From positions 62,001 through 126,000 of the forward strand of contig JACQZP010000030.1 of the NCBI GenBank assembly GCA_016213825.1: 64,000 nt of DNA, in the 5' to 3' direction. The stretch comes from Acetobacterium woodii (GTDB lineage: Bacteria; Bacillota; Clostridia; Eubacteriales; Eubacteriaceae). The notes under the pieces are model-generated. The model did not search any database. It was not told where the DNA came from and worked only from the letters and a program-made list of their open reading frames with translations. Position 1 is the stretch's first letter. Each line of letters starts with the position of its first letter. Below are positions 598 to 16,500 of the stretch, in pieces. A program made the position numbers and the translations under genes.

Positions 598-605
598 TTA
601 ATACT

Positions 606-641
606 AAAGCCCATGCGAAAAAAAACGCATGGGCTTTTTTT
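606..641. terminator. Bidirectional rho-independent terminator
   Basis: Perfect 12-bp stem AAAGCCCATGCG / CGCATGGGCTTT with an A-rich loop, followed by T's on the plus strand and with A's on the other side. It lies between the convergent flavin reductase gene and the DUF1611 gene and can serve both. Confidence 0.85.
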
Positions 642-1716
642 AATTGGTGATCTTTTCTTTTAATTCAGGGAAAGCTTTTAAAACCGATTTAACCAATTTA
701 TTACAACCGTAGGTCAAGGTATCGGTGGTTGGCAGATGGTATTCGTGTTCGTAGGTTTTGATGGTATCGTGAACTTCACTTTCGCTCATATCTTCATGAT
801 TGAGGGTGATCGCAATAACCTTGGATTGGGAAAACTGTTCAAGAAGTTCAATTTCACTGGAGAGCGTTGGCATTTGCAGATAGTCAAAATCCACTCGACG
901 TTTTCGTTTAGGTGGATGCTGAACAATGATGGCATCTGGTTTTCCGCCGCGGATAATAGCGCAGGAGCTGATAAAGGCTGGATGACTGAGTGCGCCCTGT
1001 CCTTCCAGGATAATGACATCAGGTTTTTCGTGAATATTTGCCTCGACCACCGCATTTTCCAATTCGCCAGTCATAAATTCAGAGGGAATCGCATCAAGGG
1101 CAATACCATATTTTTCGCCCTGAATCAATGAGGTTTGACCAGTGCCGATAAAACTGGCACGAAGTCCCCGTTCCTTCAGGGCCGCAATCAGCAACATTGC
1201 TGTAGTTCGCTTACCGACGGCACAATCGGTACCGAGAATGGCAATTTTAGGCGTTTTTACATTCAAAATATCCCCGGTAAAAAGATGGAGGTAGCGATTG
1301 GCAAGGGGCTTTCGGATATCATAAAGTTTAACCCGAAAACGCTTAGCTTGTTGTTTAAATTCAGAATCTTCGGAAATAAATTCATGGAGACCGTTGACAA
1401 TATCCATTCCCAAGGACATGGCCTTAAGAAAAATACGTCTTTCTTTGGTTGATAAAATCGCATCTTTTGGTGCAATGCCGTAAATAAAATATTTGGGCAC
1501 CTCGGCCAATTGATCCATGGCATCAGCTAAGTCGCGGTAGATCGGGATCCCATTTTCGACTCCCTCCAATACTTTTCCGGCATCCTGGCCTTCTTTTGAG
1601 CTGTCTATAACACATGTGATGTGGTATTTTTGAGAACGTCTGATTAAACCATTGGCAGTTTTTCCATCGGATTCACCAAATTGACCTTCACAGTAGAGTA
1701 AAGCTTTTTCTTTCAT
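640..1716 (-). CDS. DUF1611 family P-loop protein
   Basis: 358-residue protein of the DUF1611 family. A nucleotide-binding loop GTDCAVGKRTTA is near residues 160-171 and a second conserved motif EGQGALSHPA follows in the C-terminal domain; the N-terminal half is a Rossmann-like region. Some family members (DgcN) have been linked to D-glutamate N-acetylation and others act beside amino-acid epimerases; no partner epimerase is next to this copy, so I give no substrate. I place the start at the ATG at 1716, which has AAAGGAG 11 nt upstream, rather than the ATG 60 nt further up, which has no ribosome binding site. It is a single-gene unit on the minus strand, convergent with the preceding gene. 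Confidence 0.75.
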   Translation of the reverse strand: MKEKALLYCEGQFGESDGKTANGLIRRSQKYHITCVIDSSKEGQDAGKVLEGVENGIPIYRDLADAMDQLAEVPKYFIYGIAPKDAILSTKERRIFLKAMSLGMDIVNGLHEFISEDSEFKQQAKRFRVKLYDIRKPLANRYLHLFTGDILNVKTPKIAILGTDCAVGKRTTAMLLIAALKERGLRASFIGTGQTSLIQGEKYGIALDAIPSEFMTGELENAVVEANIHEKPDVIILEGQGALSHPAFISSCAIIRGGKPDAIIVQHPPKRKRRVDFDYLQMPTLSSEIELLEQFSQSKVIAITLNHEDMSESEVHDTIKTYEHEYHLPTTDTLTYGCNKLVKSVLKAFPELKEKITN

Positions 1717-1958
1717 AGAGTATAATACTCCTTTCACGTGGACAAGAACAAGTTCTTTACAAGACAAACGATTCAATTAAATTAGATATAAAAATAAAGT
1801 TTGAGAATAAAGTGCGCTCGATAATCACTACATTAATGATACCACATAAAATGGCAAATAAACGTTTCCTTAAGAAAAACATGAAATAAGGAGGCATTAC
1901 CTAAGAAAACGATGACCGGAGTATGGGCAGTAGTGCTATAAAAAATCAGACTTTATGA

Positions 1959-1987
1959 TTGACATAAATTTTCCCAAATGATATATT
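1959..1987 (+). promoter_or_regulatory. Sigma-A promoter of the TetR operon
   Basis: TTGACA at 1959-1964, 17-bp spacer, TATATT at 1982-1987. The -10 box lies inside the left arm of the large inverted repeat at 1973-2014. Confidence 0.75.
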
Positions 1988-2014
1988 GAACATATATTCA
2001 ATATATCATTTGGG
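1973..2014. promoter_or_regulatory. Probable TetR operator (perfect 18-bp inverted repeat)
   Basis: CCCAAATGATATATTGAA at 1973-1990 and its exact reverse complement at 1997-2014, separated by 6 nt. The left arm covers the -10 box and the right arm runs into the GGGAGG ribosome binding site of the TetR gene. The position predicts autorepression of the three-gene operon by its first product. Confidence 0.75.
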
Positions 2015-2021
2015 AGGCATC

Positions 2022-2675
2022 ATGGCACGAACAAAGGAACAAAATGAAAAAATCAGGGAAACCCGCAAAGAGGTAATTCGCAATGCGGCACTTAGTCAAT
2101 TTGTCAAACAGGGCTTGTTTTCCACCCGGATCCAGGATATTGCTACGGAAGCTGGCATAGCTCAGGGGCTTTTATATCATTACTATGCATCAAAAGACGA
2201 AATCTTTGTGGATCTTATCAATGATGCATTAGATAAAACCATTGGAGCATCTTATTCAGTGCGGGATATGGACACCGATCCCTGTGAAAAAATTCGTTTT
2301 TCCTTAGAACGACTGGTTGAGACCATTGAAAACAGCCAGACATTTTTAGATACCTGTCGGCTGATTACCCAGGCAACCAATTCGACCGCAATCCCTCAGG
2401 CGGCCCAGGATCTGATTCAGGAAAAACGGAACATCCCTTATCAGGTCATCGAAAAAATTATGGAAGCTGGACAAAAAGAAGGAACTATTATAGCTGGAGA
2501 TCCTAAAATGTTGGCTATTTTTTTCTGGACCAGCATTAACGGCCTGGCAATATATTATTCCACCAATAAAAACAGAGAAGTTAAACTGGATTATCGTGTT
2601 ATTGCAGCGATGTTTTTGATTGAAAGCGAAAGAGAGGATAAAAATCATGCAAAAGATAAAACCGTTTTTAAATGA
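2022..2675 (+). CDS. TetR/AcrR family transcriptional regulator
   Basis: 217-residue one-component regulator. The N-terminal helix-turn-helix (about residues 15-62: IRNAALSQFVKQGLFSTRI, IATEAGIAQGLLYHYYASKDEIF) is typical of the family; the C-terminal ligand-binding half is diverged and gives no hint of the ligand. The start is the ATG at 2022 with GGGAGG ahead of it; an upstream in-frame ATG lies within the operator and is unlikely. It heads an operon with a DUF2087 protein (overlapping by 29 nt) and an esterase, so it probably represses these genes and is induced by an esterase substrate or product. The perfect inverted repeat over its promoter supports self-regulation. Confidence 0.88.
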   Translation: MARTKEQNEKIRETRKEVIRNAALSQFVKQGLFSTRIQDIATEAGIAQGLLYHYYASKDEIFVDLINDALDKTIGASYSVRDMDTDPCEKIRFSLERLVETIENSQTFLDTCRLITQATNSTAIPQAAQDLIQEKRNIPYQVIEKIMEAGQKEGTIIAGDPKMLAIFFWTSINGLAIYYSTNKNREVKLDYRVIAAMFLIESEREDKNHAKDKTVFK

Positions 2676-2919
2676 AGAAGGGAAAATCACCCAGATTCCG
2701 GCAAAACAATCAAAAAAATTACTGGTCTATAAGTATTTGGCAGAAAAATTCGATTGTGATCAGGAATACTCGGAAAAGTCAGTTAATCAGTTAATTAATT
2801 CCTGGCATACCTTTGGAGATTTTATTTTGTTAAGACGTGGTTTAGTGGAAACCGGATTTTTATGTCGATTACCAGATGGCAGTAAGTATTGGAAAAATAA
2901 GGAAAAGGAACAAATATAA
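2647..2919 (+). CDS. DUF2087 domain protein
   Basis: 90-residue protein resembling the DUF2087 domain, which elsewhere occurs alone or fused to winged-helix regulators. Visible features are a basic N-terminal stretch (residues 12-32), conserved FDCDQEYSEKSVNQLI and a C-terminal LRRGLVETGFLCRLPDGSKYW, reminiscent of a small nucleic-acid or protein binding fold. It starts inside the end of the TetR gene (ATG 2647, GAGAGGA upstream) and ends one base before the esterase start, so translation is coupled. A helper of the TetR protein is possible; the function is not known. Confidence 0.7.
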   Translation: MQKIKPFLNEEGKITQIPAKQSKKLLVYKYLAEKFDCDQEYSEKSVNQLINSWHTFGDFILLRRGLVETGFLCRLPDGSKYWKNKEKEQI

Positions 2920-2920
2920 G

Positions 2921-3844
2921 ATGAGTACAAAAGCAAAAATGATGCACCTGACCCTGAAATATCGGCATCTGTTAAAAGGTCAATTACGACCGGAAGTGAT
3001 TGACAACAACACATCAATCAAAAAATTGCGGAAAGAATGTGATGAGAGTGCCGCCCGTTTTTTTAAACCAATCGATGGTATCCGTTATCGAGAAAGTGAT
3101 TATCTGGATTTTTATGCGGAATGGGTCGAATTTAAAGGTGCCCCTAAAGATAAAGTCGTTCTTTATTTTCATGGCGGCGGTTTTGTGATGGGCAACGCCC
3201 GATCGCACCGAAATATTGTCGGAAATTTTGTCAAACATTTGGGCATCAACGCCCTGGTCTTTGATTATCGGCTGGCTCCGGAATATCCGGCACCGGCCGC
3301 CGTTAATGATTCAGCAGCGATTTACAGCTGGCTTCTTGAACAAGGACATCAACCGGAAAATGTTGTGTTTGCAGGTGATTCGGCAGGCGGTGGGATTGCA
3401 CTGGCCACCCTATTAAAATGCAAGGACGATGGCATCCCGTTGCCGGGAGTCTGTGCCGTATTTTCGCCATGTACCGATATGACAATCTCGGGAGAGTCCC
3501 ATAAAACTCGGCTCAAAGCCGACCCCTGTACGCCCAAAGGGGCAAACGAAACCTATCTTGGCTATTATGTTGGGGCAGGTGATCGCAAACATCCTTATGC
3601 ATCGCCGTTATTTGGGGATTTAAACGGTCTGCCGCCAACCATTATTCAGGTTGGCAATAATGAAACAGGACGGGATGATTCAACACGCTTTGCCCAAAAA
3701 GCAAAAGAAGCAGGGTCGGAGATTCAGATAAAAGTGTGGAAAGATATGTTTCACTGCTTCCCCTTGCTGGCACCGATGTTTCCAGAAGCAACCGAGGCGC
3801 TGGAAGAGGTCTGTCAATTCATTTGGAACCATTTAAAAGCCTAA
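2921..3844 (+). CDS. Alpha/beta hydrolase, hormone-sensitive lipase type esterase
   Basis: 307-residue carboxylesterase of the HSL family. The oxyanion motif HGGGF begins at His84, the nucleophile is Ser154 in GDSAGGG, the acid is in the NNETGRDDS region, and the catalytic His is His278 (MFHCF). No signal peptide is visible, so it is expected in the cytoplasm. It hydrolyses short acyl esters in other members; the natural substrate is unknown. The chosen start (ATG 2921) follows the DUF2087 stop directly and has AAAGGAAC upstream; an earlier in-frame ATG at 2876 lies within the DUF2087 gene. Last gene of the TetR-controlled operon. Confidence 0.85.
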   Translation: MSTKAKMMHLTLKYRHLLKGQLRPEVIDNNTSIKKLRKECDESAARFFKPIDGIRYRESDYLDFYAEWVEFKGAPKDKVVLYFHGGGFVMGNARSHRNIVGNFVKHLGINALVFDYRLAPEYPAPAAVNDSAAIYSWLLEQGHQPENVVFAGDSAGGGIALATLLKCKDDGIPLPGVCAVFSPCTDMTISGESHKTRLKADPCTPKGANETYLGYYVGAGDRKHPYASPLFGDLNGLPPTIIQVGNNETGRDDSTRFAQKAKEAGSEIQIKVWKDMFHCFPLLAPMFPEATEALEEVCQFIWNHLKA

Positions 3845-3871
3845 GTTTGAAACTTTGATCAGACGGAGTAA

Positions 3872-3889
3872 TTTAAAAGCGCTTTTAAA
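3872..3889. repeat. Perfect 18-bp palindrome
   Basis: TTTAAAAGCGCTTTTAAA reads identically on both strands. It lies 28 nt after the esterase stop. With no loop and no T-tract it is not a typical terminator; a protein binding site is possible. Confidence 0.5.
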
Positions 3890-3943
3890 AAAAGTTCCGA
3901 TTTTTACAATATGATCGAATATAAATAAGGTAAAGTTATAAAC

Positions 3944-4002
3944 AAGAAAGACAAAGTAGTCTAGTTTCTTAATGGAAAAGGGGCTGCTTTGTCTTTCTTT
4001 AT
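3944..4002 (+). terminator. Long-stem terminator after esterase operon
   Basis: A 16-bp stem, AAGAAAGACAAAGTAG with CTGCTTTGTCTTTCTT (one G-T pair), with a 24-nt loop, followed by a T/A-rich tract. Probably ends the TetR operon. Confidence 0.6.
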
Positions 4003-4058
4003 TAAACAGCGTTTGATCAGTCGCTTTTAGTGTGGGCATTGATTAAGCCAGCAAACCA

Positions 4059-4087
4059 GGCGAGAAGTGTATCGTGCATTTCTCGCC
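4059..4087 (+). other. Leader hairpin before the amine-oxidation operon
   Basis: GGCGAGAA at 4059-4066 pairs with TTCTCGCC at 4080-4087, ending 15 nt before the AGGAG of the first gene. It would sit in the mRNA leader; no known riboswitch consensus is recognisable. Confidence 0.4.
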
Positions 4088-4114
4088 AAACTAAATGCAA
4101 TAAGGAGAAAAATG

Positions 4115-5248
4115 ATGAACGATACTAAAATTGATTTTTTATACTTGAGTGAACCAGATATGATTGCTGCCGGAGTTGAGAACATGGCGGAGTGTGTGGA
4201 TACGATGATTGAAATGTTTAAACTGATGAGTGATGGTGATTATATCATGGGTGGCGCCAATCAAAATTCTCACGGAATTATGTTGTCCTTTCCGGAAACA
4301 TCACCATTTCCCAATATGCCCCTGAATGGCCCGGACCGACGTTATATGGCGATGCCAGCTTATCTTGGCGGGGAATTCGATATGGCAGGGATGAAATGGT
4401 ATGGTTCCAATACTGCCAATAAAGAAAAAGGTCTGCCCCGTTCCATCCTGACCGTGATGCTCAACGAAAAAGATACCGGTGCACCGATGGCGTTAATGTC
4501 AGCAAACATTCTCAGTGCCACCCGTACGGGTGCGATTCCCGGAGTTGGTGCAAAATATCTGGCAAAAAAAGATTCTAAAGTTGTTGGAATCATTGGCCCC
4601 GGCGTGATGAATAAAACCGCTCTGGCGTCTTTTATGGTTACCTGTCCAAACATTGACCACATCAAAATCAATGGTCGAAGAAGCGTTACTTCAGAAGCAT
4701 TCGCTGATTATGTCAAAGCCGAATTTCCGCAGATCACCACTATCGAAATCGTCGATACCATGGAAGAGGCAGTACGAGGTGCCGACATCATCAGTGTGGC
4801 CACCTCCGGATCCGTTGGATCGGATTCCTATCCCTATATTGAAGAAGCCTGGATTAAATCGGGCGCACTGTTTTGTATGCCAGCCAATATCAAATTTGAT
4901 GACGACTTTATTTTAAACCGCGCCAGAAATGTAGTTGATAATTATAAATTATATGAGGCCTGGAGTGAGGAACTCCCCGCTCCCCGACACGAAATAGTGG
5001 GACTATTAGCTGTTCATTACATGGATCTCATTGAAAAAGGACTGATGAAGCCGGAAGACATCAGTGATTTAGGCAACATCATTGCCGGCCGAACCCCAGC
5101 CCGGCAATCAGATGATGAGATTATTCTCTACACCGTCGGCGGGATGCCAGTGGAAGATATTGCCTGGGGTACCAAACTATATCGTAAAGCACTGGAAAAA
5201 GGCATCGGTACCAAACTGAATCTTTGGGAAAAACCCCACCTGGCTTAA
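4115..5248 (+). CDS. Ornithine cyclodeaminase/mu-crystallin family protein (tyramine oxidase subunit B-like)
   Basis: 377-residue member of the ornithine cyclodeaminase/mu-crystallin family. It has the family's substrate region (MKWYGSNTANKEKGLPRSI) and a Rossmann NAD(P) site (VVGIIGPGVMNKTALASF, about residues 157-174). Family members deaminate ornithine or reduce cyclic and linear imines such as pyrroline-2-carboxylate; close relatives are annotated as tyramine oxidase subunit B. Beside a multi-subunit FAD amine dehydrogenase and RidA it probably handles the imine produced or feeds the substrate in. The ATG at 4115 is 7 nt from AGGAG; the ATG at 4112 is only 4 nt from it. An intergenic repeat element (5268-5389) separates it from the next gene. 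Confidence 0.8.
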   Translation: MNDTKIDFLYLSEPDMIAAGVENMAECVDTMIEMFKLMSDGDYIMGGANQNSHGIMLSFPETSPFPNMPLNGPDRRYMAMPAYLGGEFDMAGMKWYGSNTANKEKGLPRSILTVMLNEKDTGAPMALMSANILSATRTGAIPGVGAKYLAKKDSKVVGIIGPGVMNKTALASFMVTCPNIDHIKINGRRSVTSEAFADYVKAEFPQITTIEIVDTMEEAVRGADIISVATSGSVGSDSYPYIEEAWIKSGALFCMPANIKFDDDFILNRARNVVDNYKLYEAWSEELPAPRHEIVGLLAVHYMDLIEKGLMKPEDISDLGNIIAGRTPARQSDDEIILYTVGGMPVEDIAWGTKLYRKALEKGIGTKLNLWEKPHLA

Positions 5249-5267
5249 GCTGTCAGGAATTTTAAAA

Positions 5268-5389
5268 TAATCGAACGAAGGCAGCTTTGATGTCAGTTTC
5301 CACAATCAATTTTGTAACGTGTAGGCGTACAGTGTAAAAATTATTTTGTGTAAACTGGCAGCGAAGCTCACGGTAGGTTTTCAAATAAC
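5268..5389. repeat. Palindromic intergenic repeat, copy C
   Basis: Matches the copy at 33067-33254 in the same orientation: shared stretches include CAGTTTCCACA, GTAACGTGTAGGCG, ACAGTGTA and GAAGCTCACGG. It lacks the central 20-odd nt hairpin seen in the other full copies. It lies between the first and second genes of the amine-oxidation operon. Confidence 0.75.
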
Positions 5390-5422
5390 GAATAAGTTGT
5401 TTGTACCGAAAGGAGAATGAAA

Positions 5423-5731
5423 ATGCGAATCACAGAACACCCGATTTTGGGTGAAAGTAATAAAGGCCGCTTGGTCACATTTTACTTCGATGGAAAACCA
5501 ATCGAAGGATACGAAGCCGAACCCATTGCCGCAGCATTGCGAGCAGCCGGGGTAATGGTTCATCGTCATACTCAAAAAGGAAACTCGCCACGGGGCATAT
5601 TTTGTGCCATCGGACGCTGTACCGACTGTGTCATGGTGGTTGATGGTAAGCCTAATGTGCGAACCTGTGTTACGCCCCTGACAGAAGGAATGACTGTTCA
5701 AACGCAGGATGGGGTTTCGGCAAAGCAGTAA
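5423..5731 (+). CDS. Small (2Fe-2S) subunit of amine dehydrogenase (HcnA/SoxA-like)
   Basis: 102-residue ferredoxin-like subunit. Cysteines follow the plant-type [2Fe-2S] spacing C-x4-C-x2-C-x12-C (FCAIGRCTDC then VRTC). Such proteins are the gamma subunits of hydrogen cyanide synthase, opine oxidase, and heteromeric sarcosine or proline dehydrogenases, where they relay electrons between flavins. I prefer the ATG at 5423, 8 nt from GGAG, to the ATG at 5417, which is only 2 nt from it. It is followed within 45 nt by the large FAD subunit, giving the standard gene order for this complex. Confidence 0.85.
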   Translation: MRITEHPILGESNKGRLVTFYFDGKPIEGYEAEPIAAALRAAGVMVHRHTQKGNSPRGIFCAIGRCTDCVMVVDGKPNVRTCVTPLTEGMTVQTQDGVSAKQ

Positions 5732-5774
5732 GAACAGACACGCTTTGAGGACAATAAAAAGGATTGGTAGTGTT

Positions 5775-7361
5775 ATGAAAAGATATGATGTAATAGTGGT
5801 CGGAGCAGGTCCGGCAGGGCTATCCGCTGCCATAGAAGCGGCAAAAAGAGGGCTCAAGGTAATTGTATTTGACGAAAATGTCAAGCCCGGAGGACAATTA
5901 TTCAAGCAGATCCATAAATTTTTTGGTTCAAAAGAACATAAAGCGAAAATACGTGGGTTTAAAATTGGCGAAGATCTGCTAAATGAAGCTGAAGCGGCCG
6001 GCGTAGAAGTCGTGCTCAATGCGGCAGTCGTGGGGCTATACCTCGACAAGGAAGTGGTGGTCCAGCTTAACGGCGAAGTGAACCATTTTAAGGGTGATGC
6101 CATTATTGTAGCAACGGGTGCCTCGGAAAATATGATTACCTTTGATGGTTGGACATTGCCGGGGGTCATTGGTGCAGGAGCGGCCCAAACCATGATGAAT
6201 CTCCATCATATCCGACCGGGAAAAAAGGTGCTGATGCTGGGCACCGGCAACGTTGGTTTGGTGGTCAGTTATCAGTTAATGCAGTCTGGTTGTGAAGTGG
6301 TGGCACTGGTAGATGCAGCCCCCCGTATTGGGGGCTATGGCGTTCATGCTGCCAAGGTAGCCCGCTGTGGAGTTCCTTATTATTTATCCCACACCATTAT
6401 CAAAGCCCATGGATCAGATTATGTTACCGGCGTGACCATCGGTCAGGTCGATGCCAACTGGAATATCGTTCCGGGATCGGAAAAAGAATTTGAGGTGGAC
6501 ACCATTTGTCTGGCCGTGGGGTTATCACCAATGTCGCAGTTGCTTAAAATGGCCGGTTGTGACATGGCCGAAAACCCAGCCAAGGGTGGCTATGTGCCAA
6601 CTTGCAACAGCTATGGCGAAACATCCATTCCCGGTCTTTTTGTGGCTGGCGATGTTTCCGGAATCGAAGAAGCCAGCTCGGCAATGATCGAAGGTCGGAT
6701 TGCTGGCGTTGCTGCAGCGCATCGACTGGGCTTCATTGACGCGCTGGAACTGGAAGAAAAATCCCAGGAACTGGAACGCGCCTTGTTAAGTCTCAGAGAA
6801 GGCATGTTCAGCCCGGAAAATAAGGGGAAAGAAGTTAAAAAGACCGAAGAAGGCTATTTGGTTTCTAGTAATCTGCTGACAAAAGGCTATCTCACTGCTG
6901 AGGAAGTATTGACCTATCCGGGAGTAACCCAATCGAGTGGTATTCATCCGGTGATTGAATGCTCTCAGAATATACCCTGCAATCCCTGTCAGGATGCTTG
7001 TGTTAAAAAATGTATTACCATCGGCGAAAAAATTACATCCCTGCCAGTGGTCGATGAAACCGCCAGTTGTACCGGCTGTGGCATGTGTGTGGCCGCCTGT
7101 TCTGGGCAGTCGATCTTTCTGGTTAATGAAGATGTCGAGGATGGCACGACAGCCGTGACTATTCCGTATGAGTTTTTACCGCTGCCAGAAAAAGGAACCA
7201 AAGGAATTGCCCTGGATCGTAGCGGAGCAGAAATTTGTCAGGCGGAAATTGTGGAAATTAAAAATGTACGTGCATTTGACCGGACCAGCTTGTTGACGAT
7301 GAAGGTTCCCCTTGAAATGGGAATGAAAGCCCGATTTTTTAAATGCGTGCAGGAGGTGTGA
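5775..7361 (+). CDS. FAD/NAD-dependent amine dehydrogenase large subunit with C-terminal 4Fe-4S domain (HcnB/OoxA-like)
   Basis: 528-residue cytoplasmic flavoprotein. The FAD motif VIVVGAGPAGLSAA is at the N-terminus (about residues 6-19) and a second dinucleotide site VLMLGTGNVGLVVS near 151-164. It resembles HcnB, opine oxidase subunit A and the alpha subunit of multimeric proline dehydrogenases. Unlike the simplest members it carries, around residues 395-450, two cysteine clusters (CSQNIPCNPCQDACVKKC and CTGCGMCVAAC) like a two-cluster ferredoxin domain, suggesting electron transfer to or from ferredoxin-level carriers. The ATG at 5775 matches the FAD domain start; an upstream in-frame ATG at 5709 overlaps the previous gene. 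The next gene starts 2 nt after its stop. Confidence 0.85.
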   Translation: MKRYDVIVVGAGPAGLSAAIEAAKRGLKVIVFDENVKPGGQLFKQIHKFFGSKEHKAKIRGFKIGEDLLNEAEAAGVEVVLNAAVVGLYLDKEVVVQLNGEVNHFKGDAIIVATGASENMITFDGWTLPGVIGAGAAQTMMNLHHIRPGKKVLMLGTGNVGLVVSYQLMQSGCEVVALVDAAPRIGGYGVHAAKVARCGVPYYLSHTIIKAHGSDYVTGVTIGQVDANWNIVPGSEKEFEVDTICLAVGLSPMSQLLKMAGCDMAENPAKGGYVPTCNSYGETSIPGLFVAGDVSGIEEASSAMIEGRIAGVAAAHRLGFIDALELEEKSQELERALLSLREGMFSPENKGKEVKKTEEGYLVSSNLLTKGYLTAEEVLTYPGVTQSSGIHPVIECSQNIPCNPCQDACVKKCITIGEKITSLPVVDETASCTGCGMCVAACSGQSIFLVNEDVEDGTTAVTIPYEFLPLPEKGTKGIALDRSGAEICQAEIVEIKNVRAFDRTSLLTMKVPLEMGMKARFFKCVQEV

Positions 7362-7363
7362 CA

Positions 7364-7681
7364 ATGAGTAAAATCAATGATCGATCACGAGATCTTGGTG
7401 ACTATATTCCTGGCGCAGATGATGAAATGATCATTTGCCGATGTGAGGAAATCACAAAGGGAGAAATAAGAAGAGCGGTTCATGACGGAATGTTTACCCT
7501 TACTGAAATCAGACGCTACCTGAGAACCAGTATGGGACTCTGTCAGGGTCAAACCTGCGGACGTCTGATTAAGGGAATTGTGGCCAAAGAATTGGGGATA
7601 TCCCCATTGGATTTAGAACCTGCTATGTCCCGGGCACCGATGCGGCCCATTGAAATGAAGGTTTTAGCCAATGAACGATAG
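7364..7681 (+). CDS. BFD-like (2Fe-2S)-binding subunit
   Basis: 105-residue protein with the bacterioferritin-associated ferredoxin-like [2Fe-2S] pattern: CRC near residues 25-27 and CQGQTC near residues 58-63. In the multi-subunit amine and proline dehydrogenases this domain is either fused to the large subunit or a separate delta subunit, as here. The ATG at 7364 follows AGGAGG, and the gene begins directly after the large subunit stop, so the two are co-translated. Together with the genes on either side it makes a four-subunit oxidoreductase very likely. Confidence 0.83.
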   Translation: MSKINDRSRDLGDYIPGADDEMIICRCEEITKGEIRRAVHDGMFTLTEIRRYLRTSMGLCQGQTCGRLIKGIVAKELGISPLDLEPAMSRAPMRPIEMKVLANER

Positions 7682-7707
7682 AAATGAAATAAGATGAGGA
7701 AAATAAC

Positions 7708-8835
7708 ATGAAAAATAATGCAGACGTAATTATTATCGGCAGTGGCGTCATTGGAAATGCTGCAGCATATTATCTTGCTAAAAAAGGCTGTTCTGTTATT
7801 GTCCTGGAAAAAAGCGAGAGTATCGGAGATGGCGGCTCATCACGAAACGGTGGCGGTGTCAGACAGTCCGGCCGGGATAAACGCGAACTCCCCCTGGCAA
7901 TGTACGGCATTAAAAACATCTGGCCGACCTTGTCCGAAGAATTGGAAATGGATGTGGAGTATTATCAGGAAGGCAATTTACGTTTAGGAAAAACGGATGC
8001 CCACCTCAATGTACTGACTGGTCTGACCAAAAATGCCGTTGATTGTGGCTTAGACGTAAAAATGATTACTGGGGATGAAGCGCGCGCGATCTGCCCCTAC
8101 CTTTCCGAAGAGGTAACCGGTGCCAGTTGGTGTCCCACCGATGGCCATGCCAATCCCCTATTAACGACCTTGGCCTATTATCGCAAGGCCCGTCAATTGG
8201 GGGTCCAATTCATTACCGGTGAGGGCGTGGTTGAAATCCGCAAGATCCGTGGGAAAGCAAAACAGGTCGTCACCGAAAATGGTGTTTATGAAGGCGAAAC
8301 CATTATCCTCGCCGCTGGCTATGAAAGCCGGGAATTGGCCTCACAACTGGGAATTGATATTCCAATGACCCAGGCACTGCTGGAAGTACTGGTGACCGAA
8401 GCCCAGCCACCGATGTTTTATCAGATGCTGGGAACTGCCGCCGCTGATTTTTACGGACACCAGAGTACCCATGGCTCGTTTGTATTTGGTGGCTCATCAG
8501 GGTTTGAAGGCGTGAATAAAGACAATGGTACCCCTACGACTTCAAGTATTACGGCACCTTGTATTTGTCGCGGGATTATGAAATATTTCCCGATTCTGGA
8601 GGATGCCAAGATTGTCAGAACCTGGGCCGGTTGGATGGATGTCTGTGCCGACATGGTACCGGTGATCAGTCCGGTAGAAGAGGTACCGGGACTCATTCTG
8701 GCAGCGGCCTTCTCGGGTCACGGCTTTGGGATTTCACCAACGGTCGGGATGCTTTTGGCAGAAATGGCCACCGAAGGAAAAACAACCCTGGATCTGAGTG
8801 CCTTCCGATATGACCGATTTAAAGCGAAGATTTAA
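7708..8835 (+). CDS. FAD-dependent amino acid/amine oxidoreductase (DAO family, HcnC/SoxB-like)
   Basis: 375-residue flavoprotein of the D-amino-acid oxidase family, the expected substrate-oxidising beta subunit. The FAD motif VIIIGSGVIGNAAAYYLAKKG is at residues 8-28, and SSRNGGGVRQSGR and the C-terminal SGHGFGISPTVG are characteristic. It should oxidise a C-N bond of a secondary or primary amino acid and pass the electrons through the three partner subunits rather than to O2, in line with an anaerobe. Candidate substrates from related complexes are sarcosine, proline, hydroxyproline, opines or glycine; the sequence does not decide. It overlaps none of its neighbours and is followed 10 nt later by ridA. 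Confidence 0.85.
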   Translation: MKNNADVIIIGSGVIGNAAAYYLAKKGCSVIVLEKSESIGDGGSSRNGGGVRQSGRDKRELPLAMYGIKNIWPTLSEELEMDVEYYQEGNLRLGKTDAHLNVLTGLTKNAVDCGLDVKMITGDEARAICPYLSEEVTGASWCPTDGHANPLLTTLAYYRKARQLGVQFITGEGVVEIRKIRGKAKQVVTENGVYEGETIILAAGYESRELASQLGIDIPMTQALLEVLVTEAQPPMFYQMLGTAAADFYGHQSTHGSFVFGGSSGFEGVNKDNGTPTTSSITAPCICRGIMKYFPILEDAKIVRTWAGWMDVCADMVPVISPVEEVPGLILAAAFSGHGFGISPTVGMLLAEMATEGKTTLDLSAFRYDRFKAKI

Positions 8836-8845
8836 GGAGAAACAA

Positions 8846-9256
8846 ATGGATTTATTACGAACAAATTATTCATCCGGTGCACCGTTGGAAGAAAAAGCGG
8901 GCTATTCCCGGATGGTTAAAGTCGGACCGTTTATTTATCTTGGGGGGACCACCTCAGTTTTGCCGGATGGCTCCGTTTATGGCGAAGATGATCCCTATGC
9001 CCAAACAAAGTACGTGCTGGAAAAACATGTCGATTTGCTTGAAAAAGCTGGAGCCAAAAAAGAAGACGTCATCCGAATAAAAATCTACACGACAGATATG
9101 AAATATGGGCCAGAGATTGCCAAAGCCTATACTGAGATTTTCAAACCGGTAAAACCGCTGTTTACCATGGTGGGAACAACGATGCTCAATCGTCCCACCC
9201 AATTGGTAGAAATTGAAACAGACGCAGTGATCGGAACGACTTTAGTAGCAGATTAA
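8846..9256 (+). CDS. RidA family imine/enamine deaminase
   Basis: 136-residue member of the RidA/YjgF family. The family's hallmark strands are visible (YSRMVKVGPFIYLGGTTS; VIRIKIYTTDM; RPTQLVEIETDAVI). RidA-type proteins hydrolyse reactive imines and enamines released by PLP and flavin enzymes. Its place at the end of the amine dehydrogenase operon argues that the dehydrogenase product is an imine needing hydrolysis. The start is the ATG at 8846 behind AAGGAG; a longer frame reaching to 8798 overlaps the previous gene. The usual catalytic Arg in the C-terminal part is present in NRPTQLVEIE. Confidence 0.87.
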   Translation: MDLLRTNYSSGAPLEEKAGYSRMVKVGPFIYLGGTTSVLPDGSVYGEDDPYAQTKYVLEKHVDLLEKAGAKKEDVIRIKIYTTDMKYGPEIAKAYTEIFKPVKPLFTMVGTTMLNRPTQLVEIETDAVIGTTLVAD

Positions 9257-9376
9257 GAAATTAGAAGGGACTGATAAAAGTAATAAACGCTGAAAAACAG
9301 CTATTATTATAGAATATTCATATGTTATAATACACCTATGCTGAAACATCCAGAAATAAGTGTATGGAGAAAACGA

Positions 9377-10219
9377 ATGAACTCAAATCAAAACAAACAA
9401 ATTGTCAGTCCCAAACAACCTTATTTTGTGATGGCAACCTCCCGTTATTATAAGGCAGTGGTAATGAACTATGGCATTTCTCATTTTTACTGTTTTAACA
9501 ATGATGTGATTGGAAATTCTGTGATTGCGGTTCCTGACGGATGTATCGATATGCTCTTCTGTTGTGATGATAAAAAACCATATGCAAGTGTATGTGGAAC
9601 GGTTTTGCACCCGAAAATTGTCAAAAATGAACGCAATTATTATTTTGGAATCCGATTTTTACCAGGTCTGTCCTTAAATCTAAAAAATGCAGCAATGTCA
9701 GATTTCATCGAAAATGAAATTCCGTTTCTGGAAGTGATCCAAGATCAAGAGCTGTTTGATAAAATTACGAGTAGCAGAGATTTTAACTATCAGATTCAGG
9801 AATTCATGAAGATGTATATGCAATTCTACCAGAAAGCCCAAACAACCGATAAGTTTCTTGATTTAAAAAACTTTATGCTAAAAAGAATAAATGAAACGGC
9901 TGGACAGATTAAAATAAGTGAATTGGCCGAACAGGCTGGTTATACGGTTCGATATATTAATAAAATATTTTCAGAAGAATTTGGGTTACCGCCAAAAATA
10001 TTTTGCAAACTCATGCGTTTTCAACATTTGCTGAGTAATTTAAATGAGTTTGACAAAAACAGCTTTGATGCCAATCTGGCACAGCTTTCCATTGAATTGG
10101 GTTATTATGATCAATCTCACATGATTAGAGATTTTTATGAATTGACGAATACAACCCCCGGCAAATATATTTATTCTTTAAAAGAAAAAGAGTACAACAA
10201 ACGATTAATTGTTATATAG
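9377..10219 (+). CDS. AraC family transcriptional regulator
   Basis: 280-residue regulator. The N-terminal sensor (about residues 15-135) contains VPDGCIDMLF and GIRFLPG, as in AraC proteins with a DUF6597-like domain; the C-terminal DNA-binding domain (about 180-275) has two helix-turn-helix motifs (KISELAEQAGYTVRYINKIF and LAQLSIELGYYDQSHMIRDF). It lies in the same direction just after the amine-oxidation operon and is its most likely regulator. I start it at the ATG at 9377 (GGAG 7 nt upstream); an ATG at 9338 is also in frame. A TATAAT at 9324-9329 may be its -10 box. Confidence 0.82.
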   Translation: MNSNQNKQIVSPKQPYFVMATSRYYKAVVMNYGISHFYCFNNDVIGNSVIAVPDGCIDMLFCCDDKKPYASVCGTVLHPKIVKNERNYYFGIRFLPGLSLNLKNAAMSDFIENEIPFLEVIQDQELFDKITSSRDFNYQIQEFMKMYMQFYQKAQTTDKFLDLKNFMLKRINETAGQIKISELAEQAGYTVRYINKIFSEEFGLPPKIFCKLMRFQHLLSNLNEFDKNSFDANLAQLSIELGYYDQSHMIRDFYELTNTTPGKYIYSLKEKEYNKRLIVI

Positions 10220-10239
10220 ACCTGTAGATAAAGAAAAAA

Positions 10240-10283
10240 TGCTCGAAGCTCCTTAGTTATAGGGGGGCTTCGAGCAATTTTTT
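10240..10283 (+). terminator. Terminator after AraC regulator
   Basis: Stem TGCTCGAAGC / GCTTCGAGCA, followed by ATTTTTTT. A clear rho-independent terminator. Confidence 0.85.
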
Positions 10284-10423
10284 TGATCTGCTCGTGACAC
10301 AATCTCATTGTCAAATGCGATTTATTCAAGACAAATTTATTGAAAGCGCATTCATGATTTGATTAAAGTAATGTATTCTTCTGCCGATTAAATAAAAAAT
10401 ATAGTTTTTGGTCATTATCTGGA

Positions 10424-10453
10424 TTGGTTGCAGCATTTAATAAAGGGTATAAA
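10424..10453 (+). promoter_or_regulatory. Possible promoter of giant surface protein
   Basis: TTGGTT at 10424-10429, 18-bp spacer, TATAAA at 10448-10453, about 120 nt before the start codon. A weak match, listed because it is the best in the region. Confidence 0.3.
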
Positions 10454-10572
10454 AATTTTGTTAACCATTGATTGCACAATGTCGCGTAGTCTTGACTCGA
10501 TCGTGTCATAAAAAATGTTTTATTTGTCAATTTATACCAATCATCAAATCAGAAAAAGAGGAGAAAAGAAAG

Positions 10573-13500
10573 ATGAGATTTTTAAAAAACCTGGCACTAT
10601 TTCTTTCATTGATCTTGGTATTAAATACCATATTACCCCAAGCATTGGTTTTTGCCCAAGAGACAAATATTTCTGAAAATGTCACAACCGCAGTAGCTAC
10701 TGTCAGTGTGGCGGTGGTCAGCGGTGGCAATGGGACAGTAGCCGGCGGAGGAAACTATACATCCGGCACAATAGCAACGATCACAGCCACCCCTAACACC
10801 GGTTATTTGTTTAGCAAATGGACTGATGCAAACGGCAATACGGTTAGCACTGAGGCAAGCTATCTTTTCACAGTGTCTAATAATGTTACTTATCAGGCAA
10901 ATTTCGTCAAATCGGTACAGGTAACCAATAGAATGAACCCGATCTTTGGAAGTATGGAAATCAGCGGCGAAAATGGTCAAACCGGTAGTGGCGCCTACCC
11001 GATGGGCTCAACGATTACCGTGACGGTTACGCCAGCCCCGGGTTTTACGGTAGCATATATAGAGGCTGGGTTTAATAACGGGACATATTATCAGTATGCT
11101 TACAATACATCAACCGCAACCTTTGTTGTAAAAGATGATGTCGATTTGTTGGTTTCAGTTAATGATATCCCGTATCAGATCACGGTGGAAAGTTCCAACA
11201 CTGCATTGGGAACGGTGGCGAATACGTCAGGAACGTATTTTTATGGACAAAATGTTAGTTTAAGTGCTTATCCGGCCCCGGGTTATACCTGCCTCAGCTA
11301 TAGTTTTACATCGGGAAATGATTCGATTTGGTATCAATATTCAGGACCGATCAGCGTACCCGTGACACAGTCGGGAACATACCAATTGTTTTTTCAGCCG
11401 CAAACCTATACGCTGACGGTCACCAGCGACGGCAATGGCAACGTCACCGGTGGCGGCGCATTTGAATATGGCTCGACGCATGTCATCACAGCCACGCCCA
11501 ATCCCGGTTATCAGTTCAGTAAGTGGACTGATGCCAACGGCAATACCGTGAGCACCGCAGCAAACTATCAAGTGACGGTTAGTGGTAATGCGAACTACAC
11601 TGCGAACTTTTCGATGACGGCGGCAAATATACAAGTCTCCGGGAGTCCAACAGCAGGTGGGACCGTGACCGGGAATGGCCTTTACAATCTGGGTTCGGCG
11701 GTCACACTGACGGCCACTCCGGCAACGGGTTATCAATTTAAACAGTGGATCAATGCGGCCACTCAGGCCGTAGTCAGCAACAGCAGCAGTTATACATTTA
11801 CCGCCAGTACATCAACAGCCGGTCAGTATACGGCGATCTTTACCCCGCAGACCTATACCATTTCGACAGCAACTAACCCGACGCAAGGGGGAACTGCTCT
11901 GGTCACTTCAGCCGCGACTGTGGCTTATGGCGATACGGCAACGGTTTTGGCTACACCAGGAGCTGGCTATACCTTTGCAAAATGGGTGGATAGCGACACC
12001 GGCCAAACGGTCAGCACCATGGCATCTTATTCCTTTAATCCGGTTAAAAACACCCGTTTGATTGCAAACTTTACCCAAAGTAAATACACGTTGAGTTTAG
12101 CGGCAAATCCATCCGCTGGCGGAACGGTCAGCAGCAACACGACGAACAATCTGATTTACGGTCAGACAGTAGCCATTCAGGCCACTCCAGCAGATGGCTA
12201 TGTTTTTAATGGCTGGGTCGATTCTTCCGGCAACAGCATTTCAACCAATGCCAGTTATAATCTTGCCATCACCGGGAACATGTCACTCACTGCCAATTTC
12301 TCGGCGATTGAGTATCCGGTCGCAGTAACGGTCTCACCCGATGGCGGCGGCACTGCCACGGGCGGCGGATCTTTTGTTAATGGTGCCCAAGTCACCTTAT
12401 CAGCCACACCCGGAGCAAATTATAATTTTGTCAAATGGACACAGGCCGGATCAAATTTGGCAGTGAGTACCAATCCCCAATATACCTTTACGGCCAGCGC
12501 AGCAACCCAGGGAAATTACACCGCGGTCTTTGCTTTAAAGACATTTTCGGTGAACTTCAAACTGGATGCTCAGGCAGCCATAGCAAACCAGGTGACCATT
12601 ACGCCATCAAGCGGTATTTTTAACTATGGGTCGGTTGTGCCTGTTAATGCCGTAATCCCGATTGCTAATCCGGCCATTCATTTTCTGGGGTGGTATGAAA
12701 ACGGACGATTAGTCAGCAAAACCCAGGCATTTAACTATACGGTGACTCAAAATGCCAATCTTTCAGCGGTTTTTGTTACCGATTACGGTGCCATCATCTA
12801 TTATGGCGATCCCACTGCTGCTCAAAAGTCAAAGGTTGTCATTGCACCGATGAATACGACAAAAACGATTAGCGCAGCAACATCGTCGCTTTATGATTTT
12901 GCTTATTGGACAGATACAGCCGGTAACCAATATCCCCAAACAACCCTCGATGTCACGGTTGGACCAGATTGGGTTGAGAGTTATGTGGCCCATTATACCC
13001 CTAAAACATTTACGGTTGCAGTCGCTGGTCAAACTCCGGGCGGAACCGCAACCACCTCGTTGAATTCGATTCAATATGGTCAGGAGGTAACGGTGACAGC
13101 TACCCCCGACACGGGATATGCATTTTTAAACTGGACGGATTCTGCAACCGGGGCAGTCTTAAGTACCGATGCCAGTTGGACCTTTCAACCCTCTCAAAAC
13201 ACATCGCTGCAGGCTAATTTCAATCAAATCGTTTATACCGTGGGTTTAAACGCTGATCCGGACGGCGGGGGAACGGTAGCCTGGGGTGATTATCCAAACG
13301 CAGGGCCTTACTATGGAACCGTTATCACTGCTATCGCTACGCCAGAACAGAATTATGTGTTTGATGGCTGGATTAATGCCCAGGGTGTCTGCGTTTCTAC
13401 CAACAGCTCATATGATTATACGGTCATCGGAAATGACACCTTAACGGGACAGTTTCACGTCAGTCAGAACACCATTACGGCGATCGCCGAACCCGCTAAT

Positions 13501-16500
13501 ATGGGGACGGTTACTGGCGGGGGCACGTTTGCGTATAAAACTCAGCAGACCTTATCAGCGATCCCCAATACCGGTTTTGAGTTTGTGAATTGGACAAACA
13601 ACTTGGATGATACCGTCGTAACGACGCCTGAAATGGTGGTGAATGTATCGGAAGATATCACGTATACGGCAAACTTTGATGTGCTGAAATGCCCGGTCAC
13701 GTTAAATGTTATCGATCCCGCCCGTTCCACTTATGGTACGGTGGAAATGGATGTCTATCAGAATGGGGTACTGGCACCAAGTGGTACCATCCCCAATTAT
13801 GGGGATAAGGTGGTGCTGACAGCAACCACCAATCCCGCCATGACGAATGTGATTTTCAAAGACTACCTCGATGGCACCGGAGCGCTGCTTTCCTACAATT
13901 CGGTTTATACCATCGAAGCCATGACTCAACCGATGGAAATTCAGTATGATTTTGTTCAGAAATATACTGTGACGGTCCCTGTTTCGGCCAAGTGGACCGA
14001 TAATTATCAGCGGAACCTGCTGCCCGGGGTTGTTCCCCAGGTCACTCAATTTCCCAATCAGCAGGTAAGTGGGAATTTTAAGGATGCCATTACTCTTAAC
14101 TATGGAACAGTAGATGCCAATCTTGTTTTTGATGGCTGGTATACCGATGAGGAAACACCGGTTTTAGTCAGCAGTGAACCGTCCTTCAGCTATCAGCTGC
14201 TGGACAGCACCCCGCTGGTGGCCAAGCTGCATTTAAAGGACATTGGAATCATGGTAGAAAATGCCTATGTTCCGAATCAAGCCATTTCTGGAGTGGACTT
14301 AAACGGCGGTGAGGTATCCGGCAGCGGTTATCGAAATGTCGGGGAATCTTTTAATATCAGCAGCACGGTGGATGATAATTACAGTTTTGAAAATTGGACT
14401 CAGGGTGGTACCACCTTGAGTAAAAAGGCCAGCTTTGACTATCCGGTAGCCGGACAACCAGGCGTTGATGCAACCCCGATTCAGGCCAACTATTCACCGA
14501 ATGCCTACTACCTGACCTTGAATGCCAATCCAAAAGGCAGTGGGCAGGCAGCTCCATCGGGATATTATCCCTATGGAACCCTGGTGACCATCTCCCAGGG
14601 AAATCAGGCTGGGTATGTGTTTTCCCATTTTGAAGACGGTAACGGCAACACCTTGACGAGTACGACTCCAAACAGTAAAGCTGGCACACTAACTCTTTAT
14701 ATGACTGGTGATACAACCGTGGTGGCGGTTTATAAAGAAAGTGCCGGCAGTGAGGCCAAAAAGATCGTCGAAATCATCGCCGCTGCTGCTACGGCCGCCG
14801 CCATTGCCGCCGGTATTGCTGCGGCCATCTATTTTGGCGGCGATGAGCTGTTGGCTGATGCCGCATTGGACACCGCCGAGGTAGCTTTAGAGGATTTGGA
14901 CGAATTGGCTGGCGGTGTCGTTGATCATAATCCGCCGGATCCGGACCCGGATCCTGACAATCCCGATGATCAAACGGATATCCTGATTACCGCCACCGCT
15001 TCGCCGGCAGATGCCGGAACGGCAATTGGCGGCGAAACGTATCGGGTCGGTGAAATGGCCGTCTTAAAAGCCACCGCTAATCCGGGCTGGGTTTTTGATA
15101 ACTGGACCAGTGAGGGTGCCGTGGTGATTGATGATCCGGAGGCAAAGAGCATTTCATTTCTGGTTGATGAAGCCGATGACGGTTCCGTTTTAACCGCTCA
15201 CTTCAATCAGGAATTTACGATTACTACCAGCGCTACCCCGGAAATTGGGGGAACAATCACACCCACCGAAAAAGTTGTTAGTGGGGAAAGTGCTATCGTG
15301 ACGGCCACTCCTAATGAAGGTTATCTCTTTGACGGCTGGTATGAAAATGGGGTTCAGGTTTCCACGGAAGAAACCTATACCCTTGAAGCGGTGGCCGCTG
15401 ATCATAATCTCACCGCCCAATTTGAAGCGGGATTTGACGTAACCCTGACTGCTGATCCGGTGGCGATGGATACCCTGGTGACCTTTACCGGAGATGGCTT
15501 ATCCAAAACCGGAGAGCATACCATTACGGCGACCTTATTAGATACCGAAGCTGAAAATTATGTCTTTAATGGCTGGTATGTCAATCTGACCGACCCGGCA
15601 CCGGTATCAACCGAAGAAAGCTACACCTTCAATCTAACAGCAGACACCAGTTACATCGCCAGTTATAGTGAACAATTTACCATAAGCACCAGTGCCACCC
15701 CTGAAGCAGGCGGAACGGTCACCCCGACTCAGCAGGTCACGATCGGCAATGACGCCACCGTCACAGCAACGCCAAATGAAGGCTATATTTTTGACGGCTG
15801 GTACGAAAATGGCGTTCAGGTTTCTACTGAGGAATCCTATACCCTTGAAGCGGTGGCAGCTGATCACAATCTCACCGCCCAATTTGAAGCGGGCTTCAAT
15901 GTAAGCCTCACCGCTGATCCTGCGACAATGGCTACCCTGGTGACCTTAACCGGAGATGGCTTATCCAAAACAGGAGAGCATACCATTACGGCGACCTTAT
16001 TAGATACTGAAGCCGAAAATTATGTCTTTAATGGCTGGTATGTCAACCTGACCGACCCGGCACCGGTGTCAACCGAAGAAAACTACACCTTCGATTTAAC
16101 CGCAGACACCAGTTACATTGCCAGTTATAGTGAGCAATTTACCATAAGCACCAGTGCTACCCCGGAAGCAGGCGGAACGGTTACCCCGACTCAGCAGGTC
16201 ACGATCGGCAATGACGCCACCGTCACAGCAACGCCAAATGAAGGCTATGTTTTTAATGGCTGGTATGAAGGTGAAGCCCAGGTTTCCGAAGACGAATCCT
16301 ATACGCTGACAGCGGTGGCGGCTGATCACAGTCTGACTGCTCAGTTTGAGTTAGGTGCCAATGTAACCCTGACGGCTGATCCGAGTACAATGGGCACCCT
16401 GGTGACCTTTACCGGAGCGGGCTTATCCCAAACCGGGGAACATACCATCACCGCGACTCTGGATGATGCAAATACTGATAATTATATCTTTAAAGGCTGG

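What the first reader, a model, noticed from the sequence alone, without database searches (positions are those of the whole stretch)
4115..10219. Anaerobic amine/imino-acid oxidation module with a ferredoxin-fused subunit
Four dehydrogenase genes (2Fe-2S, FAD plus two 4Fe-4S clusters, BFD-like, DAO-like) are joined by an ornithine-cyclodeaminase-like protein, RidA and an AraC regulator. The parts resemble opine oxidase, HCN synthase and multimeric proline dehydrogenases, but the fused ferredoxin-like domain suggests coupling to low-potential carriers. Substrate unknown; sarcosine, hydroxyproline, opines or aromatic amines are candidates. RidA implies a free imine product.
Basis: partly seen in the sequence, partly recalled or inferred. 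Interest (0 to 1): 0.6.

Follow-up and report, generated by a model that had tools for sequence, protein, structure and literature searches.

The report
Anaerobic amine-oxidation gene module
An anaerobic bacterium, like many relatives in guts and sediments, carries a conserved set of iron-sulfur and flavin enzymes that probably strips the nitrogen from small amines without oxygen, using the same partner protein that other bacteria pair with a quite different oxidase.

Summary
The genes are real, nearly as described: an ornithine-cyclodeaminase-like protein (OCD), Fer2, an FAD protein with two 4Fe-4S motifs, BFD, DAO, a Rid protein and AraC. Cluster cysteines are invariant in 103-106 loci (one position in 105 of 106). 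The set is widespread: of 53 named loci with enough flank, 53 have the four dehydrogenase genes and 52 OCD, so OCD is a fifth core protein. OCD homologues (up to 59% identity) in Proteobacteria precede a Rid protein and a one-chain DAO flavoenzyme only 29% identical to ours (17 of 18 regions read); many are named 'tyramine oxidase subunit B'. Some anaerobic clusters hold polyamine-type importers; three of 80 carry agmatine-to-putrescine genes. Between transporter classes the OCD tree needs 1 change, DAO 3, the electron-transfer subunits 7-10 (shuffled about 16), though inside one class OCD does not follow the permease better. Best reading: an anaerobic counterpart of that amine-oxidation operon; OCD and DAO handle the amine, the Fe-S trio carries electrons. 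That OCD first joins the amine to a 2-oxo acid, like its closest fold SbnB in reverse, is inferred. Ferredoxin coupling is unsupported; substrate unproven.

The parts
4115..5248 (+). OCD/mu-crystallin-family protein (NF004848, 'tyramine oxidase subunit B'); fifth core protein, probably an NAD(P)-linked amine- or imine-handling enzyme
   Evidence: AAGGAG upstream of ATG 4115
5417..5731 (+). 2Fe-2S subunit (Fer2_4), like the N-end of SoxA
   Evidence: PF13510 104.9 bits; 4 Cys in 103 of 103 loci
5775..7361 (+). FAD (thioredoxin-reductase-like) subunit with two C-terminal 4Fe-4S motifs; ORF opens at 5709, family start at 5775
   Evidence: nine Cys in 105-106 of 106 loci
7364..7681 (+). BFD-like 2Fe-2S subunit (ORF opens at 7343; start uncertain)
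   Evidence: PF04324 49 bits; 4 Cys in 103 of 103
7708..8835 (+). DAO-family catalytic subunit (SoxB / proline dehydrogenase beta-like)
   Evidence: PF01266 230.8 bits; best solved relative 1y56_B, profile E 1.2e-57
8846..9256 (+). Rid-family (imine/enamine hydrolase-like) protein; ORF opens at 8798, start uncertain
   Evidence: PF01042 75.8 bits; below cut-off of TIGR00004
9338..10219 (+). AraC-type regulator (true start may lie further in)
   Evidence: PF12833 47.6 bits
10240..10276 (+). terminator-like hairpin with T tail
   Evidence: 15 pairs, 8 GC; consensus match only, such sites are at chance number in the region

Best explanation
This is an oxygen-independent amine-oxidation (deamination) operon. 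A five-protein core, OCD plus Fer2, FAD-2x(4Fe-4S), BFD and DAO, oxidises an amine. The flavin in DAO takes two electrons from a C-N bond and passes them through the Fe-S clusters to the FAD/NAD-type subunit. The Rid protein would help hydrolyse the imine to aldehyde and free or transferred nitrogen. OCD and DAO handle the substrate; the three Fe-S/FAD subunits are more interchangeable wiring. It is the anaerobic counterpart of the proteobacterial OCD-Rid-DAO operon whose OCD is named tyramine oxidase subunit B: the single-chain flavoenzyme is replaced by a four-subunit flavo-iron-sulfur dehydrogenase. Shown: gene content, conservation, near-constant OCD linkage, link of some clusters to polyamine-type importers and agmatine-to-putrescine genes. 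Inferred: amine rather than amino acid as substrate of the window copy, order of steps, aldehyde product, NAD(H) as partner.
For: Four dehydrogenase genes 53 of 53, OCD 52 of 53 loci with at least 8 kb on each side (27 of the 80 loci dropped for short flanks). Proteobacterial OCDs up to 59% identical lie directly before Rid and DAO in 17 of 18 regions read of 640 records. PotD-like importer genes near in 15 of 53. Agmatine deiminase and N-carbamoylputrescine amidase inside or beside the cluster in 3 of 80, checked against NCBIfam cut-offs for L135 only and over them. Label test on 66 loci: Pot/APC changes OCD 1, DAO 3, FAD 7, Fer2 9, BFD 10. OCD K95, R110 and D276 invariant in 96 of 96, DAO R52, R304 and H338 in 103 of 103. 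An aldehyde-dehydrogenase-like gene within 9 kb in 7 of 18 proteobacterial regions; Sagittula's scores best to phenylacetaldehyde dehydrogenase, below cut-off.
Against: No substrate, product or electron acceptor is tested. The window copy has no transporter, PII or aldehyde gene beside it. Within APC loci OCD follows the permease no better than FAD does (r 0.44 against 0.505), and AraC and Rid follow FAD and DAO better than OCD. The DAO relatives with solved structures act on amino acids or N-substituted amino acids (activities from general knowledge), and the proteobacterial DAO is closest to L-amino acid deaminase, so an amino-acid substrate is possible. APC permeases carry amino acids as well. 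The tyramine label rests on a database name; the paper behind it could not be read. Short subunits give noisier trees, which inflates their change counts. Aldehyde-dehydrogenase neighbours may be unrelated. 11 of 18 regions have none within 9 kb (one more only a 43-bit piece).
Confidence: 0.58

Rival explanations
1. N-carboxyalkyl (opine-type) tagging, a sharper form of the best explanation: OCD condenses the amine with a 2-oxo acid using NAD(P)H; the DAO complex, holding the carboxylate, oxidises the N-CH2R bond; Rid helps hydrolyse the imine, giving aldehyde and an amino acid.
For: OCD's closest fold is SbnB, Z 39.7; entry titles show it solved with N-(1-amino-1-carboxyl-2-ethyl)-glutamic acid and with 2-oxoglutarate plus NAD. 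SbnB splits that N-substituted glutamate with NAD+ (PMC9485241 passage). DAO kin such as SoxB need a carboxylate (general knowledge), and R52 and R304 are invariant in 103 of 103. OCD varies more than FAD between loci (mean distance 0.415 against 0.277) and follows transporter class best.
Against: Archaeal alanine dehydrogenase is tied by fold (Z 38.9). The route costs NAD(P)H. TIGR03944 (SbnB) is below cut-off, 177.8 against 326.9 bits. Inside the APC class OCD does not follow the permease better than FAD. No conjugate has been seen.
Confidence: 0.3
2. Amino-acid inversion or imino-acid shuttle of the DauA/DauB type (recalled): DAO oxidises a D- or cyclic amino acid to the imino acid, Rid hydrolyses it or OCD reduces it with NAD(P)H to the L-form.
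For: OCD resembles alanine dehydrogenase and pyrroline-2-carboxylate reductase; DAO is nearest proline dehydrogenase beta; the proteobacterial DAO is nearest L-amino acid deaminase; Rid proteins act on imino acids (general knowledge).
Against: Polyamine-type importers, agmatine deiminase and N-carbamoylputrescine amidase in some clusters; the NF004848 name; OCD scores far below the cut-offs of the pyrroline-2-carboxylate reductase families matched.
Confidence: 0.2
3. A catabolic dehydrogenase for opines, sarcosine or hydroxyproline, with OCD as an accessory that feeds the product onward.
For: Subunit kinship with SoxA/SoxB and with the flavin opine dehydrogenases of PMC4575208 (passages). An octopine-dehydrogenase-family gene lies upstream of the module in L081 and L082.
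Against: OCD is nearly as constant as the dehydrogenase (52 of 53) and is the best-conserved part shared with the proteobacterial operons; the sarcosine-oxidase lysine is glycine (G341, 103 of 103); I recognised no opine gene by eye among the 24 recurrent neighbour clusters.
Confidence: 0.12

Closest known systems
Proteobacterial OCD-Rid-DAO operon ('tyramine oxidase subunit B', NF004848)
   Same: OCD up to 59% identical; Rid protein, DAO-family flavoenzyme, often APC permease and AraC
   Different: Its DAO is one chain, L-amino-acid-deaminase-like, 29% identical to the window DAO; no Fer2/FAD/BFD genes listed beside it in the annotated regions; its Rid is only 26% identical
Heterotetrameric sarcosine oxidase (SoxABDG)
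   Same: DAO is SoxB-like; Fer2, FAD and BFD match successive parts of SoxA
   Different: SoxA-like parts split over three proteins, no SoxD/SoxG match among the seven genes scanned, added 4Fe-4S motifs, carboxylate lysine replaced by glycine
Dye-linked L-proline dehydrogenase (1y56), HCN synthase, flavin opine and D-hydroxyproline dehydrogenases
   Same: Multi-subunit FAD/Fe-S enzymes with a DAO catalytic subunit; 1y56_B is the nearest solved relative
   Different: Here two 4Fe-4S motifs are fused to the FAD subunit, BFD is separate and OCD is a constant partner; the subunit layouts of the others are recalled or from passages, not tested
[quoted passage not shown]
   Same: Closest fold and profile match to OCD
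   Different: 29-30% identity in the structural alignment; serves siderophore biosynthesis; below SbnB family cut-off

Membership tests
NF004848 'tyramine oxidase subunit B' (OCD) | Score over curated cut-off of 362 bits | tested here: met
   589.8 bits
NF004848 'tyramine oxidase subunit B' (OCD) | Takes part in tyramine oxidation | not testable with these tools
   Database name only; no paper with the phrase in the held library
Proteobacterial OCD-Rid-DAO operon | OCD next to Rid and a single-chain L-amino-acid-deaminase-like DAO | tested here: not met
   Four-subunit dehydrogenase instead; DAO 29% identical
Ornithine cyclodeaminase | NF005762 cut-off 350 bits | tested here: not met
   65.8 bits
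SbnB | TIGR03944 cut-off 326.9 bits | tested here: not met
   177.8 bits
Heterotetrameric sarcosine oxidase | One-chain SoxA over TIGR01372 cut-off, SoxB over TIGR01373 cut-off | tested here: not met
   FAD subunit 132 bits against 1164; DAO 150.5 against 529.45
Heterotetrameric sarcosine oxidase | Lysine after GGF in the SoxB C-terminal part (substrate-binding role recalled) | tested here: not met
   Aligned position is G341, glycine in 103 of 103
Multimeric L-proline dehydrogenase / HCN synthase / opine dehydrogenase class | DAO catalytic subunit with separate FAD and 2Fe-2S subunits | tested here: met
Multimeric L-proline dehydrogenase / HCN synthase / opine dehydrogenase class | Activity on proline, glycine or opine | not testable with these tools
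   needs assay
Canonical RidA subfamily (TIGR00004) | Score over 106.25 bits | tested here: not met
   45.9 bits; the superfamily PF01042 is met with 75.8 against 27.3

The most novel reading that the evidence does not exclude
A widespread, undescribed route of primary-amine use built on transient N-carboxyalkyl (opine-like) conjugates: an SbnB-like OCD joins the amine to a 2-oxo acid, and a generic carboxylate-anchored flavoenzyme frees the aldehyde. Anaerobes plug in a four-subunit Fe-S dehydrogenase and Proteobacteria a single-chain flavoenzyme, with OCD setting the substrate. It would stand beside the gamma-glutamyl and N-methylglutamate routes.
Probability: 0.28. Interest if true: 0.82.

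Novelty: new variant of a known kind. Interest (0 to 1): 0.6.

Why it matters
The bacterial oxidases known to me for biogenic amines use oxygen or a respiratory chain (general knowledge). A conserved anaerobic module in Acetobacterium-type bacteria and in many gut Lachnospiraceae would explain how amines such as putrescine, agmatine or tyramine are removed or used for nitrogen where there is no oxygen. It also offers a direct test of what the poorly understood 'tyramine oxidase subunit B' does.

Tried and rejected
Papers. Ten searches of an open-access library were made. 'Tyramine oxidase subunit B', OCD with four-component and BFD terms and OCD with Lachnospiraceae, Rid and amine terms found nothing. 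One search gave PMC4575208 (passages). Searches gave listings with nothing on this module that I could see from titles and abstract starts; led to passages of PMC10606097 and PMC13098254, where the 2010 tyramine/dopamine catabolon paper on Pseudomonas putida U was seen in reference lists only. Its tyn genes are recalled, not read, and that TynB is an OCD is my inference from the family name. led to passages of PMC12414870 and PMC9485241. A PotN-type role for the PII protein is recalled. 'Undescribed' rests on these searches alone.

Models and scans. The FAD-subunit model is poor (mean pLDDT 68.4) and was not used. The A3 profile found no solved relative at the strict limit 1e-30. No RNA family reached gathering score in 1-12000. 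Promoter-like sites (14 found, 14.8 in shuffles) and terminator-like sites (8, 7.2) are at chance number.

Co-variation. The idea that OCD follows the transporter fails inside the APC group (r OCD-APC 0.44, FAD-APC 0.505; AraC and Rid also follow FAD and DAO better) and holds between APC and Pot classes and for PII (r 0.667 against 0.26). In one search, 95 loci were common and 66 used; 29 were dropped as near copies or for having neither transporter. Where two OCDs stood in a locus, the one nearest FAD was used. The trees are quick trees without bootstrap; those are FastTree.
Full report
OBSERVATION. AAGGAG precedes the ATG at 4115; a 15-pair terminator-like hairpin follows at 10240-10276, though such sites are at chance number in the region as a whole. 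The FAD protein carries nine cysteines of two 4Fe-4S motifs after residue 395; eight are kept in 106 of 106 loci and one in 105. The four cysteines of Fer2 and of BFD are kept in 103 of 103 (the window and a few genomes held twice are included). The predicted clusters are thus under strong constraint, though cluster binding itself is not shown.

HOW COMMON. Of the 80, 53 have at least 8 kb on both sides; 27 were dropped. In these 53: Fer2, FAD, BFD and DAO 53; OCD 52 (missing in A. bakii, L115); PII 32; AraC 28; APC permease 28; Rid 18; iron-type alcohol dehydrogenase 16; PotD-like 15. These 80 are the best-scoring loci and so biased to near kin. In the window's genus 16 of 19 genomes have an OCD over the family cut-off; in a draw of 391 genomes of the class, 11 (the two sets overlap, and in two of the 11, G080 and G289, no dehydrogenase lies beside it). 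The own genome has a second, distant copy with Rid, APC and PII (L023; FAD 68% identical). OCDs without the dehydrogenase beside them exist (12 of 142 tree rows are labelled so, some only because of contig ends or distance).

THE PROTEOBACTERIAL TWIN. Against plasmids the OCD finds 640 records; the top row has 58.5% identity, and 18 of the 30 listed rows are annotated 'tyramine oxidase subunit B' (others lack annotation or bear other names). I read 18 regions. In 17 of 18 the OCD is followed directly by a Rid protein and a DAO flavoenzyme (four of these regions were judged from open frames alone or with sparse annotation). The exception is Agrobacterium cucumeris (47% identity); in Pseudomonas silvicola the genes are in pieces. 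An APC permease is found within 9 kb in 12 of 18 and an aldehyde-dehydrogenase-like gene in 7 of 18, an eighth scoring only 43 bits. The DAO is only 29% identical to the window's and is nearest L-amino acid deaminase, and the Rid protein is 26% identical, whereas OCD is 59% identical. In the OCD tree 16 of the 17 proteobacterial OCDs form one clade (support 100) inside the set of 105 rows that holds the window. The part best conserved between the two operons is therefore OCD, not the oxidase.

WHAT AMINE. Of 20 tree rows with polyamine-type ABC importers, 19 are labelled with two OCDs, 18 with an iron-type alcohol dehydrogenase and none with Rid. In L123, L135 and L152 (3 of 80) agmatine deiminase and N-carbamoylputrescine amidase lie inside or beside the cluster; for L135, the one checked, both pass equivalog cut-offs (574 against 381.8 and 460.8 against 410.25 bits). 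That points to agmatine and putrescine for those clusters. In Proteobacteria the adjoining aldehyde dehydrogenase scores best to phenylacetaldehyde dehydrogenase in Sagittula (613 bits, cut-off 850) and to aminobutyraldehyde dehydrogenase in Sphingobium (465, cut-off 615): below cut-off, so hints only. The window copy has no such neighbours; its substrate class is inferred from kinship.

WHO HANDLES THE SUBSTRATE. On 66 loci with a clear transporter class (48 APC, 18 Pot) the trees need these numbers of Pot/APC changes: OCD 1, PII 1 (51 loci), DAO 3, FAD 7, Fer2 9 (65 loci), BFD 10; shuffled labels need about 16 (13.3 for PII). Short proteins give noisier trees, but FAD is the longest. So OCD and DAO go with the substrate class while the electron-carrying subunits are swapped more freely. 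Against this, within the APC loci OCD does not follow the permease better than FAD does, and AraC and Rid follow FAD and DAO better than OCD.

HOW IT MAY WORK. OCD models well (pLDDT 93.4). Its nearest solved folds are SbnB (Z 39.7, rmsd 2.1, 327 residues) and archaeal alanine dehydrogenase (Z 38.9, 2.0, 314), which are tied; the sequence profile prefers SbnB (1.5e-59 against 3.5e-39). SbnB uses NAD+ to split an N-substituted glutamate into 2-oxoglutarate and L-2,3-diaminopropionate (PMC9485241, passage). DAO is nearest proline dehydrogenase beta and SoxB, enzymes of cyclic or N-substituted amino acids (general knowledge); R52 and R304 are invariant in 103 of 103, and the SoxB lysine is glycine. 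This suggests, without proof, that OCD joins amine and 2-oxo acid and DAO then oxidises the conjugate. Electrons would pass by the 2Fe-2S and 4Fe-4S centres to the FAD subunit, which keeps a second GxGNxG motif and D180 (17 of 17), suiting NAD(H). Ferredoxin as direct acceptor is unlikely on energy grounds (general knowledge of the redox couples). The aldehyde could go to an aldehyde:ferredoxin oxidoreductase-type enzyme (three matches in the own genome; four weaker matches at three places for Aldedh) or, in Pot-type clusters, to the alcohol dehydrogenase, which would make the whole a redox-neutral deamination for nitrogen; the PII protein in 32 of 53 clusters fits that. All of this paragraph beyond the fold, profile and residue results is inference.

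VERDICT. A real and widespread five-protein variant of the multimeric amino-acid-dehydrogenase class, not found described in the ten paper searches made, most likely for amines. Novelty: new variant of a known kind. The genus of the genome (Acetobacterium or very near) is inferred from tree neighbours.

Noticed in passing
window 10468-19221: A 2917-aa open frame of many repeated units of the 'ATPNTGY' kind starts just after the module; by eye a repetitive surface protein.
   Followed up: no
window 640-1776 (-): DUF1611 protein, weakly DgcN-like (167 bits, cut-off 480), beside a flavin-reductase-domain protein at 70-597; the same block precedes the module in L083 and L105.
   Followed up: no
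L024 7178-9493 (upstream of the window on the same contig): Three adjoining genes that look by eye like the anaerobic homocysteine-biosynthesis set; label recalled, not tested.
   Followed up: no
L023 8732-9091, L087 6622-6963, L135 557-910: PII-type proteins (PF00543 for L023 and L135) near the permease or Pot importer in 32 of 53 loci; they follow transporter class as closely as OCD does.
   Followed up: partly
L081 16727-17941 and L082 14569-15783: An octopine-dehydrogenase-family gene (PF02317, for L081) with corrinoid-protein-like and PanB-like genes (by eye) upstream of the module on the same strand in two species of the genus.
   Followed up: no
L138 and L152, downstream of the cluster: Circularly permuted ATP-grasp gene (PF14403, for L152) with an alpha-E-like gene (by eye) beside Pot-type clusters.
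   Followed up: no
L203 14116-17137 (Aminobacter aminovorans plasmid): The OCD-Rid-DAO operon lies about 3 kb from bhcABC of the beta-hydroxyaspartate cycle, which could mean a two-carbon product.
   Followed up: no
L104 (G394) 8142-10403: OCD with AraC but no dehydrogenase genes in the 20 kb read, in a species of the same genus.
   Followed up: no
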